From positions 248,001-312,000 of the forward strand of contig NZ_CP036246.2 of the NCBI RefSeq assembly GCF_004299785.2: 64,000 nucleotides of DNA, in the 5' to 3' direction. Source of the stretch: Arcobacter porcinus. GTDB taxonomy: Bacteria; Campylobacterota; Campylobacteria; Campylobacterales; Arcobacteraceae. How positions within the stretch are numbered: the stretch's first letter is position 1; each line of letters starts with the position of its first letter. Made by a program: the position numbers and the translations under genes. The notes below the pieces were generated by a model. That model saw only the letters and a list, made by a program, of their open reading frames with translations, did no database searches and was not told where the DNA came from. Shown here in pieces: positions 19,753 through 54,830 of this stretch.

Positions 19753-19803
19753 AGATTTAAGTACTAACTTGTGATCTTTTTACAATTTACTGTTTATGAC
19801 TTA
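19753..19803 (+). repeat. Internal inverted repeat arm A of the IS110 element
   Basis: About 50 bases including AAGTACTAACTT, ATCTTTT and TATGACTT. They recur in reverse orientation at 21243-21292, at roughly 80 percent identity with a one-base gap; weaker similarity continues outward through TAGCTTTT. This arm overlaps the end of the transposase gene (stop at 19794). Present also in copy 2 at 47560-47610 and 49050-49099. Confidence 0.75.
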
Positions 19804-21023
19804 GAAAATACACGAGATGGATCATATGGAGTGTTGTATCTAAATATAGAGTAAATTATGGTTGCAAGTTTTCTAGCAACAGCAATAATTCCCTCCTGTT
19901 TGGATTTACCTTGAGACTTTTTTGTATCATAATATTGTTTTAGTTCTTTGTTGTGTAATAAACAACTAACACTTGCCATATATAAAGCATGTTTAGCTAA
20001 AGAAGAACCTCTTTTGCTTAAATGACCTGTAGATTTGGAATTACCTGAGCTATTTTCTGTTGGAAATAATCCAAGATAACCAATAAATTTAATAGGTGTT
20101 TTAAATCTTGATAGATCTCCACATTCACTAATAACTGCAGCAATAGTTTTAGATGAAACTCCAGGAATAGTTTTTAAGTTCTCAATCAATGAATTAGTTG
20201 GAACATCTTTTTCCTCTTTAATACCATTTTTTTCAAGAAGTGCTAATATCTCTTCTTCTAATATAGATAGTTCTTCTTGATATATTTTAAGAAGTCTAAT
20301 AGAACTTTTAATAGCAATAGCTCTTGCATCTTTGGCTTTACCTGAATAAATAGAGTTTTTTGCTAACTCTAAAACCTCTATAGCCTTTTGGTTATTAAAA
20401 CTATTTCCTTGAATATGTCTAAAAATTTTAAGTATCCTGTCAACACTACTATGTTTATAGTGGTGTGCAGTTGGATATTTATCTAAAAGTGCAAGCCCTG
20501 TGATGCTAAATATATCAATAAAATTTTCAAGTTCTGGAAATGTAACTGTTACTTGAGTAAGTATTCTCTTCTTTACTTCTTTCATGTCTGATTGTATAGA
20601 AGCACGATTACGATATAAAGTTCTTAAACTCTGATATTCGTCATCAGTTACATAACCTGAACTATATTTACCATCTTTTAAAAATAAAGCTATGATCCAA
20701 GAATCTATGTTGTCGTTTTTTACTTTCTTCATTGTGTGTTGTTCTCTATATCTAGTTGTTTGAAATGGATTTAATAGTTTAACATTAAACCCATGAGAAT
20801 TTAAAAACTCCCAAAGGTTTTCACCATAAATACCAGTTGCTTCAAGACCAATTATAAAATCATTTGTATTTGATGAAATAGTTTCAAGTTTAGTAATAAA
20901 CTTTGAAAATCCATCAATACAGTTTGTAACTCTTATAGGTTTTTGTGTAACTTTTACTTCATTCTCATCAATGATAGTAACAACATGAAAGCTTTTAGCA
21001 ATATCAATTCCAACATAATACAT
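19794..21023 (-). CDS. IS110-family transposase (DEDD type), copy 1
   Basis: 409-residue recombinase. The N-terminal RuvC-like domain has the DEDD set at Asp7 (VGIDIAK), Glu61 (GLEATGIY), Asp104 and Asp107 (VKNDNIDSW). A helix-hairpin-helix lies at about 285-300 (TIPGVSSKTIAAVISE). The C-terminal Tnp domain has NSSGNSKSTGHLSKRGSSLAK, with the serine (325/326) that acts in IS110-type strand exchange. All key residues are present and the protein is identical to copy 2, so the element is probably active and recently moved. The leader carries an ACGAGG SD 9 bases before the ATG. Confidence 0.96.
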   Translation of the reverse strand: MYYVGIDIAKSFHVVTIIDENEVKVTQKPIRVTNCIDGFSKFITKLETISSNTNDFIIGLEATGIYGENLWEFLNSHGFNVKLLNPFQTTRYREQHTMKKVKNDNIDSWIIALFLKDGKYSSGYVTDDEYQSLRTLYRNRASIQSDMKEVKKRILTQVTVTFPELENFIDIFSITGLALLDKYPTAHHYKHSSVDRILKIFRHIQGNSFNNQKAIEVLELAKNSIYSGKAKDARAIAIKSSIRLLKIYQEELSILEEEILALLEKNGIKEEKDVPTNSLIENLKTIPGVSSKTIAAVISECGDLSRFKTPIKFIGYLGLFPTENSSGNSKSTGHLSKRGSSLAKHALYMASVSCLLHNKELKQYYDTKKSQGKSKQEGIIAVARKLATIIYSIFRYNTPYDPSRVFSKS

Positions 21024-47600: not shown

Positions 47601-48830
47601 TTATGACTTAGAAAATACACGAGATGGATCATATGGAGTGTTGTATCTAAATATAGAGTAAATTATGGTTGCAAGTTTTCTAGCAACAGCAATAATTCCC
47701 TCCTGTTTGGATTTACCTTGAGACTTTTTTGTATCATAATATTGTTTTAGTTCTTTGTTGTGTAATAAACAACTAACACTTGCCATATATAAAGCATGTT
47801 TAGCTAAAGAAGAACCTCTTTTGCTTAAATGACCTGTAGATTTGGAATTACCTGAGCTATTTTCTGTTGGAAATAATCCAAGATAACCAATAAATTTAAT
47901 AGGTGTTTTAAATCTTGATAGATCTCCACATTCACTAATAACTGCAGCAATAGTTTTAGATGAAACTCCAGGAATAGTTTTTAAGTTCTCAATCAATGAA
48001 TTAGTTGGAACATCTTTTTCCTCTTTAATACCATTTTTTTCAAGAAGTGCTAATATCTCTTCTTCTAATATAGATAGTTCTTCTTGATATATTTTAAGAA
48101 GTCTAATAGAACTTTTAATAGCAATAGCTCTTGCATCTTTGGCTTTACCTGAATAAATAGAGTTTTTTGCTAACTCTAAAACCTCTATAGCCTTTTGGTT
48201 ATTAAAACTATTTCCTTGAATATGTCTAAAAATTTTAAGTATCCTGTCAACACTACTATGTTTATAGTGGTGTGCAGTTGGATATTTATCTAAAAGTGCA
48301 AGCCCTGTGATGCTAAATATATCAATAAAATTTTCAAGTTCTGGAAATGTAACTGTTACTTGAGTAAGTATTCTCTTCTTTACTTCTTTCATGTCTGATT
48401 GTATAGAAGCACGATTACGATATAAAGTTCTTAAACTCTGATATTCGTCATCAGTTACATAACCTGAACTATATTTACCATCTTTTAAAAATAAAGCTAT
48501 GATCCAAGAATCTATGTTGTCGTTTTTTACTTTCTTCATTGTGTGTTGTTCTCTATATCTAGTTGTTTGAAATGGATTTAATAGTTTAACATTAAACCCA
48601 TGAGAATTTAAAAACTCCCAAAGGTTTTCACCATAAATACCAGTTGCTTCAAGACCAATTATAAAATCATTTGTATTTGATGAAATAGTTTCAAGTTTAG
48701 TAATAAACTTTGAAAATCCATCAATACAGTTTGTAACTCTTATAGGTTTTTGTGTAACTTTTACTTCATTCTCATCAATGATAGTAACAACATGAAAGCT
48801 TTTAGCAATATCAATTCCAACATAATACAT
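47601..48830 (-). CDS. IS110-family transposase (DEDD type), copy 2
   Basis: 409 residues, identical in sequence to the copy at 19794-21023, with Asp7, Glu61, Asp104, Asp107 and the NSSGNS serine intact. The identity points to recent transposition or gene conversion. See copy 1 for domain detail. Confidence 0.96.
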   Translation of the reverse strand: MYYVGIDIAKSFHVVTIIDENEVKVTQKPIRVTNCIDGFSKFITKLETISSNTNDFIIGLEATGIYGENLWEFLNSHGFNVKLLNPFQTTRYREQHTMKKVKNDNIDSWIIALFLKDGKYSSGYVTDDEYQSLRTLYRNRASIQSDMKEVKKRILTQVTVTFPELENFIDIFSITGLALLDKYPTAHHYKHSSVDRILKIFRHIQGNSFNNQKAIEVLELAKNSIYSGKAKDARAIAIKSSIRLLKIYQEELSILEEEILALLEKNGIKEEKDVPTNSLIENLKTIPGVSSKTIAAVISECGDLSRFKTPIKFIGYLGLFPTENSSGNSKSTGHLSKRGSSLAKHALYMASVSCLLHNKELKQYYDTKKSQGKSKQEGIIAVARKLATIIYSIFRYNTPYDPSRVFSKS

Positions 48831-50748: not shown

Positions 50749-52060
50749 GGGGACCGTTCATAATTTTGTGTCAATTAGGTAAAATAAAAAATACCAAAGG
50801 ACACAAAGATGAAAATAGAAATAGATGTAGAGCAATTTGCTAAAGATATAAAAGCTGGTAAAAGTATCGGTGGAGCAAATGGTGCTCTAGGCTCTTTAAT
50901 CAAACAATTAACAGAAGCTGCACTTGCAGCTGAGATAGATTCACATCTTGCTCAAGATTTGAGTAATAATAGAAAAAATGGATATAGCTCAAAGACTATG
51001 AAAAGTGATCATGGAACATTCGAACTAGATGTTCCAAGAGATAGAAATGGTAACTTTGAACCAGAAATTGTAAAGAAAAATCAAACAACCATGACAAGTG
51101 AAATTGAAGATAAAATATTATCTTTGTTTGCACTAGGTAATAGCTATTCACAAATAGCAAAACATATAGAGGATTTTTATTGTGTAGGCTTCTCAAAAGC
51201 TACAATAAGTGCTGTAACAGATAAAATAATACCAATGCTTAATGATTGGAAAACAAGACCTCTAGAATCAGTATATCCATTTGTGTTTCTTGATGCAATT
51301 CATTATAAAGTAAAAGAAGATGGGAAATATATCGCTAAAGCTTTTTATACAGTTTTAGGAGTTAGAGTTGATGGTAAAAAAGAGGTATTAGGACTTTACT
51401 TGAATGAAAGTGAAGGAGCAAAGTTCTGGTTACAAGTTTTAACTGATTTACAAAATAGAGGTGTTAAAGATATTCTTATTGCTTCTGTTGATGGTTTAAA
51501 AGGATTTCCAGAAGCTATAAATTCTGTATTTCCAAATACCGAAGTACAACTTTGTATAGTTCATCAAATTAGGAATTCAATTAAATATGTTGGATCTATA
51601 AACCAAAAACAATTTGCACAAGAGTTAAAATCTGTATATCAAGCTTTTACAAAAGATGAAGCATTATATGAACTTGATAAACTTGAAGAAAAATGGGGTA
51701 AAAAATACCCTATAGTATTTCAATCCTGGAGAAATAAATGGGAAAATTTAACAGTTTATTTCCAATATCCTGAAGATATAAGAAGAGTAATTTATACTAC
51801 AAATATTATTGAATCAGTACATAGACAATTTAGAACTTTAACTAAGACTAAGGGGGCTTTTCCAAATGATGATAGCTTACTAAAACTACTATTTATGGGT
51901 ATAAAAAATGCTCAAGAAAAATGGACAATGCCAATTAGAAATTGGAGTTTAACTTTGTCTCAACTAGCCATCCACTTTGAAGGACGGCTTGATGATAGTT
52001 TAAATTTATGATAGAATTTTAGGACTTATCTGATGATGACACAGAATATTGAACACTACC
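50749..52060 (+). mobile_element. IS256-family insertion sequence
   Basis: The left end begins GGGGACCGTTCATAATTTTG at 50749. The right end, read inward from 52060, begins GGTAGTGTTCAATATTCTG and continues into TGTCA. The two ends match at about 18 of 24 positions. The 8 bases outside each end (AAGACTAA and GATTTTAC) do not match, so no target duplication is left, which points to a deletion or rearrangement next to the element. It fills the space between nirA and a truncated histidine kinase. Confidence 0.85.
50809..52011 (+). CDS. IS256-family (mutator type) transposase
   Basis: 400 residues. N-terminal KNGYSSKTMKSDHGTFELDV and VPRDRNGNFEPEIVKK; the catalytic acidic triad is likely in FVFLDAIHYKV (Asp), SVDGLKGFPEAI (Asp) and the later TNIIESVHRQFRTLTKTKG (Glu); LCIVHQIRNSIKYV is the conserved family stretch between. 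AAAGGA precedes the ATG. The length is normal and unbroken, so it may be active. Confidence 0.95.
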   Translation: MKIEIDVEQFAKDIKAGKSIGGANGALGSLIKQLTEAALAAEIDSHLAQDLSNNRKNGYSSKTMKSDHGTFELDVPRDRNGNFEPEIVKKNQTTMTSEIEDKILSLFALGNSYSQIAKHIEDFYCVGFSKATISAVTDKIIPMLNDWKTRPLESVYPFVFLDAIHYKVKEDGKYIAKAFYTVLGVRVDGKKEVLGLYLNESEGAKFWLQVLTDLQNRGVKDILIASVDGLKGFPEAINSVFPNTEVQLCIVHQIRNSIKYVGSINQKQFAQELKSVYQAFTKDEALYELDKLEEKWGKKYPIVFQSWRNKWENLTVYFQYPEDIRRVIYTTNIIESVHRQFRTLTKTKGAFPNDDSLLKLLFMGIKNAQEKWTMPIRNWSLTLSQLAIHFEGRLDDSLNL

Positions 52061-53205
52061 GATTTTACATGTAAAAAACTCATATCTTCATAGGAATTTT
52101 TTAAAGTTCTTAAAGCACCTTCTATTTTCTTTGAATATTTATCTTCACCAAGATTCTCATTTTTTAGTTGTAAATTTAGATTAATAATTGAAATTGGAGT
52201 TTTTATTTCATGAATTGAGTGTTCTATAAATTTATCTTTATAGTTTAAAATATACTCTTTTTCTCTAACTTTATTTATAATGTATATAGTAACAACTCCT
52301 AAAATTAAGATAATAAAAAACAATAAATTTAAGATAAAGATTTGTTGATTAAAATATTTTTCATCAAAAACTATACTGTAAACTATTTTTGCTTCATCAA
52401 ATATTGGACTGTGTTCTAGTAAAAAATATGTTTTATTTTCACTATTTTGTTTAAAATACTTAAGATTCTTATCAAAGCTATCAAAAAGCTTTTTGCCTTT
52501 TTCAATTCTTTTTTCTATCTCTTCTAAGCTAGGTTTATATGATTTTATATTTTTAAAAATAAAATCTCCAATATAACCATCGTTAAAAATAATATATGCA
52601 TTTGTATTTATAATCTTTGTATTTTCATTAATACTTTGTTTTAAATCTTCTAAATCTTTATACAAATCATCATAAGTATAACTTATTTGTAAAACTCTAT
52701 TTGAATTTTGTAAATATGAGTCTGAATAACTTATCATCTTTTGAGAAAACATCTCAAAAACTGGAGGGGAAACACCTATTAGATTATTTTGCTTATGATT
52801 GTCAAAAAGATATTTTGCAAAACTTAAATCAAAATTTATATCAGATGGCACTGTTGTATTTTTTATAACTAGATTTTCATCTGTTATATAAATGTTATAA
52901 GGCTTATCTGGTAAACCTTGATTTATCTTTTTATAAATTTCATCCAAAGATGTATCATAAGAATTTTTATCTAAATATTTTAAAACTTCTTTATGTTTTT
53001 CAAGTAAAATCTCTTTTTTATTTGAAAACTTAAATAGTAGCTTTGTTAAAAATATACTAGTATCTTTTTGTATTTTGTAAAATACTATCTCTTGATTTTT
53101 TTTATGGTTATCACTTAAATTTATATACAATAAAAAGTAACTTATAAAAATAAATAATAAAAAAATAGAAATTATAATAAATAAAAATGTTGAAGATTTT
53201 GGCAT
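52006..53205 (-). pseudogene. Sensor histidine kinase, 3' end removed by IS256
   Basis: The N-terminal membrane segment (FLFIIISIFLLFIFISYFLL) starts from ATG 53205 with GAGAGG upstream. A periplasmic sensor region of about 250 residues follows, then a second membrane segment (FILNLLFFIILILGVVTIYI) and the HisKA box HSIHEIKTPISIINLNLQ with the phospho-His. Sequence typical of the family stops around SYEDMSFLHVK; the last ~18 residues are read from the IS256 end (52006-52060). The ATPase domain is absent, so it cannot autophosphorylate. No response regulator is adjacent. Confidence 0.88.
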
Positions 53206-53343: not shown

Positions 53344-53381
53344 TCACACAAAAGTCACATCAATACCACAGATATGTCACA
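53344..53381 (+). promoter_or_regulatory. Four-box TCACA operator, 11-bp period, before 53434
   Basis: TCACA at 53344, 53355 and 53377, and CCACA at 53366: four direct boxes exactly 11 bp apart. The last is followed by TCAATTTTATATATTTTC, where TATATA (53389-53394) can act as -10, so the last box overlaps -35. The layout is that of OmpR/PhoB-type activators. A near copy stands before 54231. Confidence 0.75.
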
Positions 53382-53433
53382 TCAATTTTATATATTTTCA
53401 ATTAATATAATTTTTATATAGGAGAATTAATAT

Positions 53434-53964
53434 ATGAACTCAAATAATCAAGTTCAAAAAACTCGTTTTGTTGTTAAAGATGCAAAAGGCATATTTTTAA
53501 CTTTTTTAGGAATAGTTCCTTCGATTTTCATTTATTATAATGGAGGAAAGGAGGCTATATTAGAAGATATATTTGGTCTTATTTTTACTGGTTTAGCTGT
53601 AATTTGTTTTCTAAGACTTAGAGCTATATGGAGTGGTGTTGTAGTTGACACTGCAAAAAATACTTTAATATATTATGGTGGGAAAAAAAGTGCAAATAGC
53701 TTTTTTGAATATTTTTCTCCCATATTTTGGTTTCAATATTTTTTACGATTTAAAGTTAAATTAAATGAAATTAGTCAAATGCATACAACAGAAGAATTTG
53801 AAAAAGGTTACGGAGAAAATAATTATAAATGGGTTTCTTATATTCAATTTGATGGAAACTTTGGATCATTTAAAATCAAATTTACAGATAAAGGAAAAAG
53901 AGACCAATTATACTCTTTAGTAAGAAGTGTAAATCAGATGGGTAGCCCAATGTTTATGGCTTAA
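53434..53964 (+). CDS. Membrane protein of unknown function
   Basis: 176 residues. Two hydrophobic segments, about 19-36 (GIFLTFLGIVPSIFIYY) and 45-62 (IFGLIFTGLAVICFLRL), are followed by a PH-like soluble part (VVDTAKNTLIYYGGKKSANSF, then WVSYIQFDGNFGSFKIKF). No family was firmly recognised. SD GGAG is 8 bases from the ATG. Its promoter carries the TCACA operator shared with 54231, so both are likely members of one regulon. The truncated histidine kinase is divergent from it. Confidence 0.7.
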   Translation: MNSNNQVQKTRFVVKDAKGIFLTFLGIVPSIFIYYNGGKEAILEDIFGLIFTGLAVICFLRLRAIWSGVVVDTAKNTLIYYGGKKSANSFFEYFSPIFWFQYFLRFKVKLNEISQMHTTEEFEKGYGENNYKWVSYIQFDGNFGSFKIKFTDKGKRDQLYSLVRSVNQMGSPMFMA

Positions 53965-53988
53965 TAATTAGATATTAGTATAAAGAAG

Positions 53989-54022
53989 CTCTCTAATATT
54001 ATGTTATATTTAGAGAGTTTTT
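53989..54022 (+). terminator. Terminator after the 53434 gene
   Basis: CTCTCTAA (53989-53996) and TTAGAGAG (54010-54017), 13-base loop, then TTTTT. Confidence 0.75.
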
Positions 54023-54137
54023 ATAAATTTAAAAGAATTTACCCTTTTCTTATCAATGCTATTGAGATTTTCATCTTTTGAATAAAGAATCAAATTCCTT
54101 TAATATCTTATTTCAAAAATATACAAATTTTAAAATA

Positions 54138-54175
54138 TCACACACTTGTCACACAATCATCACACCAAAGTCACA
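54138..54175 (+). promoter_or_regulatory. Four-box TCACA operator, 11-bp period, before 54231
   Basis: TCACA at 54138, 54149, 54160 and 54171, exactly 11 bp apart, followed by TCAGTTTTATACTATTTC with TATACT (54183-54188) as -10. It aligns with 53344-53381 base for base in spacing and in the box-to-promoter distance. The stretch before it (54023-54137) holds nothing else recognised. Confidence 0.75.
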
Positions 54176-54230
54176 TCAGTTTTATACTATTTCTTACTCA
54201 ATTTTGAGAAACAAAAAATAAAGGACGAAA

Positions 54231-54830
54231 ATGAAAAAAATAAGTACAGTGGTTGCTGGTTTAATCTTGACAAGTTCATCAATGATGGCTATGGATATTG
54301 AGTATTTTGTAGGAGCAGGGGCAGAAAGAACAAAATCAAATCTTGAATTAAAAGCAGATGATGGGAATGATTCAAGTAATCAATTTGATACTGCTTTAAA
54401 AATAAAAGCAGGAATTATCTTAGATAAAATACATAGAGCTTATATCTCTTATTCAAAACCTTCTGAGAATTGGTCTTATAGTGAACCAGGTTTTAGTGAA
54501 GGTGGTAAGAAATCAATAACACAAGTTTTAATTAATTATGATTATTTATTACCTATAACAGAGGATTTTAGAATTGGTGGTGGGGTACATTTAGGACTTT
54601 CAAAAGTAGAACATAAATATAGTAATAGTGATAATGAAAGTGCAAAATTTTCTGATAATGGTTTAGCTTATGGGGTACAAATAGCAGCTATTTATGATAT
54701 TACAAAAAATGTTGAGTTTGAGTTAGGTCTTGGACATACAAGATATACAGCTGAAATGAAATATGATGATGCTAAAGAAAAACTAAAATATACAACTTCT
54801 GCATATGCAGGTTTAAATTTTAAATTCTAA
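54231..54830 (+). CDS. Outer-membrane beta-barrel protein
   Basis: 199 residues. The signal peptide runs to MMAMD (about residue 20). Alternating strand pattern throughout (IEYFVGAGAERTKSNLEL, ITQVLINYDYLLPI, FRIGGGVHLGLSKVEHKY), and it ends in AYAGLNFKF with the C-terminal Phe of barrel proteins. It resembles the generic OMP_b-brl/OmpX-like group; size suggests an 8-stranded barrel. Expression is probably controlled from the TCACA operator. SD AAAGGACG precedes the ATG. A terminator follows. Confidence 0.8.
   Translation: MKKISTVVAGLILTSSSMMAMDIEYFVGAGAERTKSNLELKADDGNDSSNQFDTALKIKAGIILDKIHRAYISYSKPSENWSYSEPGFSEGGKKSITQVLINYDYLLPITEDFRIGGGVHLGLSKVEHKYSNSDNESAKFSDNGLAYGVQIAAIYDITKNVEFELGLGHTRYTAEMKYDDAKEKLKYTTSAYAGLNFKF

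What the first reader, a model, noticed from the sequence alone, without database searches (positions are those of the whole stretch)
53344..54175. Two promoters share four TCACA boxes at an exact 11-bp period
Boxes at 53344/55/66/77 and 54138/49/60/71 share spacing, following TCA(A/G)TTTTATA context and distance to the -10. Tandem 11-bp direct repeats overlapping -35 are how PhoB/OmpR-family regulators bind, but TCACA repeated four times is not an operator I recognise. The controlled genes are an outer-membrane barrel and an unknown membrane protein, so this is a small envelope regulon with an unassigned regulator.
Basis: partly seen in the sequence, partly recalled or inferred. Interest (0 to 1): 0.72.

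Follow-up and report, generated by a model that had tools for sequence, protein, structure and literature searches.

The report
Two-component operators beside their broken kinase
The repeated TCACA boxes are real and look like the DNA landing sites of an ordinary two-component response regulator (PhoB/OmpR type) whose sensor gene lies right next door; in this strain an insertion sequence has cut off the sensor and the regulator gene is gone, so the sites are probably orphaned.

Summary
Two promoters 794 bp apart each carry four boxes at exactly 11 bp; 7 of 8 are TCACA, one is CCACA. They are the only such arrays in the 2.02-Mb genome. The functional unit is probably a 22-bp pair of boxes ending 9 nt before a -10 element, with no recognisable -35; the window promoters carry two such pairs in tandem.

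The regulator can be assigned. Divergent from the first gene lies a histidine kinase (52061-53205, minus). In relatives this kinase is followed by an OmpR/PhoB-type response regulator. In two of them it is divergent to an autotransporter gene whose promoter has one TCACA-N6-TCACA pair in the same register; in a third, from another genus, it is divergent to the homologue of the window's 176-aa membrane protein. In the window genome an IS256-family element truncates the kinase and no orthologous regulator remains.

Unrelated OmpR-type regulators in the same bacterial family have the same pair beside their own operons. Changing the spacing by 1 bp abolishes the genomic signal. This is a new member of a known kind (pho-box-like tandem operators). 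Binding, phosphorylation and signal are inferred; nothing was measured.

The parts
53344..53381 (+). Operator 1: TCACA, TCACA, CCACA, TCACA at 11-bp period, read here as two 22-bp dimer sites in tandem
53391..53396 (+). Predicted -10 element TATATT, 9 nt after the proximal box; no TTGACA-like -35 at the proper spacing
53434..53964 (+). 176-aa membrane protein of unknown function; no Pfam or NCBIfam match; a homologue in another genus also faces a kinase-regulator pair
54138..54175 (+). Operator 2: four exact TCACA boxes at 11-bp period
54185..54190 (+). Predicted -10 element TACTAT, 9 nt after the proximal box (TATACT, 7 nt after, is an alternative)
54231..54830 (+). 199-aa outer-membrane beta-barrel protein (OMP_b-brl)
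52061..53205 (-). Truncated sensor histidine kinase, divergent from operator 1: sensor part and His box kept, ATP-binding domain lost; 71% identical to the intact orthologue over residues 1-384 of 524
50750..52060 (+). IS256-family insertion sequence (transposase 50809-52011) with four further near-identical copies seen in the genome; it cuts the kinase; no target-site duplication at the two flanks

Best explanation
The boxes are operators of an OmpR/PhoB-family response regulator that, in relatives, is encoded directly behind the divergent histidine kinase. A regulator dimer would bind one 22-bp pair of boxes head to tail (RTCAC-N7-RTCACA), lying over the place of the missing -35, and recruit sigma-70 RNA polymerase to the -10 nine nt downstream; the two tandem pairs here would hold two dimers. 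Target genes are surface or membrane proteins. In this strain an IS256 element with an adjacent deletion removed the kinase's catalytic half and the regulator gene, so the promoters are probably off or basal, or served by another regulator. Shown: boxes, period, register, conservation beside the kinase-regulator pair, truncation, absence of an orthologous regulator. Inferred: binding, activation rather than repression, phosphorylation, the signal.
For: Kinase orthologues in 5 relatives are followed by an OmpR-type regulator (Response_reg + Trans_reg_C). In G024 (71% kinase identity) and G030 = A. vitoriensis (63-66%) the kinase faces an autotransporter gene whose promoter has TCACA-N6-TCACA or CCACA-N6-TCACA plus TCRNTTTTR and a -10 in the same register; these two were found by looking at the orthologous position, not by motif. 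In G071, another genus, the kinase-regulator pair faces the homologue of the 176-aa protein, with GTCAT-N6-GACAT in the same register. Across 104 Arcobacteraceae genomes the promoter pattern gives 13 matches with N6 spacing but 2 poor matches each with N5 or N7, and 1 with the pattern reversed. G022, G023 and G029 have sites in front of, or within, a cluster led by an OmpR-type regulator; G407 has four sites within 5 kb around an OmpR-type regulator-kinase operon, one in front of the regulator itself. In 15 sites the spacing is 11 bp and a -10-like hexamer can be placed 9-10 nt beyond. Regulators beside the G022/G029 and G024/G030 sites are only 24-33% identical overall but have similar recognition helices (TSTxxRTL).
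Against: No binding or expression data. The cognate regulator is inferred from relatives because it is absent here. Kinase orthologues in G001, G004 and G012 have no such array at the same place. Most family-wide sites were found with a pattern that already held the -10 and the T-run, so their distance to the -10 is partly conditioned; only G024, G030, three of the G407 sites and, loosely, Sulfuricurvum are free of that. Orthologues of the second target (the barrel) in other Aliarcobacter lack the boxes. The half-site match in G071 was read after the fact.
Confidence: 0.77

Rival explanations
1. A surviving OmpR-type regulator of this genome, most likely the paralogue at genome position 1717176-1717805 (54% identical to the G024 regulator), now works these operators, so the regulon is still live.
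For: 14 OmpR-type DNA-binding domains remain; the paralogue is the nearest. Both operators look intact, seven of eight boxes perfect, although the kinase is broken.
Against: The paralogue's recognition helix differs (TIDAIRSL against SSNAIRTL/TSTAIRTL) and none of the 14 has the site-bearing type. The seven Aliarcobacter genomes that carry the paralogue type without the site-bearing type show only poor box matches or none. The insertion may simply be too recent for the operators to have decayed.
Confidence: 0.2
2. The operators belong to a CRP/FNR-type regulator, since TCACA is the reverse complement of the CRP half-site TGTGA.
For: The pentamer is the CRP half-site (general knowledge).
Against: CRP sites are inverted repeats TGTGA-N6-TCACA; here all boxes point the same way, and so do those in relatives. 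Conservation sits beside OmpR-type regulators.
Confidence: 0.03
3. The array is a chance or structural repeat (curved AT-rich DNA, satellite remnant) without a regulator.
For: AT-rich region; the two promoters look partly duplicated.
Against: Far above shuffles, only in two promoters of the genome, conserved in register in relatives, sensitive to a 1-bp spacing change.
Confidence: 0.03

Closest known systems
PhoB / pho box (E. coli; reviewed in PMC4415409)
   Same: Two 11-nt direct repeat units per dimer, bound head to tail; the core CTGTCAT resembles (T)GTCACA. From general knowledge, the box takes the place of the -35 about 10 nt before the -10.
   Different: Different genes, no link to phosphate shown, half-site not identical; the regulator of the relatives is far below the PhoB cut-off (63.7 bits against 296.2).
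PceP (TCS2 response regulator) of Sulfurospirillum multivorans, PMC7755780
   Same: Same phylum, OmpR-family regulator; CTATA repeated with 6-nt gaps, that is an 11-bp period, over the -35 region, with mapped starts and gel shifts; strains are known in which transposase genes disrupt the regulator gene.
   Different: Half-site CTATA, not TCACA; the two outer repeats are taken as the dimer site; controls organohalide respiration; protein relationship not tested here.
DccRS of Campylobacter jejuni (review PMC9449129)
   Same: OmpR-like regulator activating a handful of genes for periplasmic and membrane proteins. I recall a reported repeat TTCAC-N6-TTCAC in front of its targets (MacKichan 2004); that paper was not held and this was not checked.
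   Different: Orthology not tested; the review lists the regulator gene before the kinase gene there, kinase before regulator here.

Membership tests
OmpR/PhoB-family two-component system | Receiver domain plus winged-helix Trans_reg_C domain in the cognate regulator | tested here: met
   Met in relatives G024 and G071 and in the paralogue; the cognate regulator itself is absent from the window genome
OmpR/PhoB-family two-component system | Tandem direct-repeat operator with about 11-bp (one-turn) period near the -35 | tested here: met
   N5 and N7 spacings lose the signal
OmpR/PhoB-family two-component system | Specific binding of the phosphorylated regulator to the operator | not testable with these tools
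   needs gel shift or footprinting
Complete two-component system in this strain | Kinase with His box and ATP-binding domain, and its regulator | tested here: not met
   Kinase matches the intact orthologue only to residue 384 of 524; no regulator above 54% identity, and that one has its own kinase
PhoB (phosphate regulon) equivalog | Score above the TIGR02154 cut-off | tested here: not met
   63.7 bits against 296.2
DccR of C. jejuni | Orthology and TTCAC-N6-TTCAC operator | not tested
   No named C. jejuni sequence was at hand; motif recalled from memory
CRP/FNR site | Inverted repeat TGTGA-N6-TCACA | tested here: not met
   All boxes in one orientation

The most novel reading that the evidence does not exclude
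A surface-protein regulon whose own kinase and regulator were removed by an insertion sequence, while its doubled operators were kept because a paralogous regulator has taken them over: regulator replacement caught in progress.
Probability: 0.15. Interest if true: 0.5.

Novelty: new member of a known kind. Interest (0 to 1): 0.36.

Why it matters
It gives a concrete operator (RTCAC-N7-RTCACA, 9-10 nt before the -10) and a concrete regulator family for surface proteins and autotransporters in Aliarcobacter, and it shows a regulon in which regulator and targets have been uncoupled by an insertion sequence.

Tried and rejected
Named genome scan with the 176-aa protein found nothing; the protein is rare (3 other hits in 399 genomes of the order, one of them a broken frame). 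Structure prediction of the 176-aa protein was too poor to search (mean pLDDT 52); two N-terminal helices and a strand-rich C-terminal part are suggested only. A scan of 80 regulator loci for paired TCAC boxes with a -10 gave 3 hits, no more than its controls, so beyond G024 only the pair shared by two Sulfuricurvum-like loci is mentioned. Orthologues of the barrel lack the boxes. The C. jejuni DccR papers were not held. A CRP reading was rejected by box orientation.

Full report
Observation. The reported boxes are present at the reported coordinates with exact 11-bp spacing. Seven of eight are TCACA; the third box of promoter 1 is CCACA. Shuffles give 0.13 matches on average where 5 are seen, and no other three-box array with up to two mismatches exists in the 2.02-Mb genome. 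In promoter 1 the 22-bp period is stronger than the 11-bp one: boxes 1 and 3, and boxes 2 and 4, resemble each other, which suggests two tandem 22-bp dimer sites.

Setting. The window is from an Aliarcobacter-like genome (named relatives). It is cut by an IS256-family element of 1311 bp (50750-52060), of which four other 99-100% identical copies were seen in the regions checked; the flanks show no target-site duplication, so a deletion next to the element, or recombination between copies, is likely. The kinase keeps its sensor part and His box; the match to the intact orthologue stops at residue 384 of 524. No orthologous regulator is left: the best is a 54% paralogue with its own kinase.

Assignment of the regulator. 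In five relatives the kinase is followed by a 211-220 aa OmpR-type regulator. Two of these, G024 (uncultured Aliarcobacter bin) and G030 (A. vitoriensis), are arranged as in the window, with the kinase divergent to another gene, here an autotransporter. Their intergenic regions contain GTCACACATATGTCACATCGCTTTTGTATAAT and GCCACACCAAAATCACATCAGTTTTGTATTAT: one box pair each, in the same register to the -10 as in the window. In G071, another genus of the family, the same kind of pair faces the homologue of the window's 176-aa protein, and GTCAT-N6-GACAT stands in the same register. A kinase tree groups the window kinase with G024 (97% support).

Generality. The pattern TCACA-N6-TCACATCNNTTTTRTAWWAT gives 13 matches in 10 of 104 Arcobacteraceae genomes; N5 and N7 versions give 2 each, of poor quality. 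G022 and G023 have a site in front of an OmpR-type regulator gene and another further down the same cluster; G029 has one inside the cluster. G407 has four pairs in 5 kb around an OmpR-type regulator-kinase operon, one of them in front of the regulator. Across 15 sites a -10-like hexamer can be placed 9-10 nt after the proximal box; in three of them the scoring rule preferred an overlapping hexamer at 7 nt. Regulators of the G022/G029 and G024/G030 groups are distant (24-33% identity) but have similar recognition helices; none of the 14 regulators left in the window genome does. This last point rests on few sequences.

Mechanism. Neither window promoter has a TTGACA-like hexamer 16-18 nt before its -10 (what the sequence shows; the scan lists only a weak ATCACA/TATACT pair at 54159). 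A pair of boxes over the -35 region at fixed distance to the -10 is the class of promoter activated by PhoB (pho box, PMC4415409) and by the Sulfurospirillum regulator PceP, whose CTATA repeats with 6-nt gaps overlap the -35 of mapped promoters (PMC7755780). Activation by a dimer on each 22-bp pair is therefore the best reading, with two dimers at the window promoters. With kinase and regulator gone, expression in this strain should be basal unless the paralogue or another regulator binds.

Verdict. Real, conserved and explained: operators of an OmpR/PhoB-type two-component system that has been dismantled in this strain. New member of a known kind.

Noticed in passing
window 19794-21023 and 47601-48830: Two copies of the same 409-aa transposase (IS110-like by my reading), identical over the listed translation.
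   Followed up: no
L040:4500-6156: The A. vitoriensis kinase orthologue has one in-frame TAA, and a C9 tract lies just upstream of its start, reminiscent of phase-variable genes of Campylobacter.
   Followed up: partly
L200:4984-9920: Four TCAC-N7-TCACA promoters (SDR enzyme, a 366-aa protein, regulator-kinase operon, lectin-like protein) around one OmpR-type system: a likely complete small regulon.
   Followed up: partly
L041:2840-2940: Inverted repeat AATGTCAGCCACATGTCAAT...ATTGACATGTGGCTGACATT just upstream of a flagellin-like gene; possibly an invertible promoter or a transposon end.
   Followed up: no
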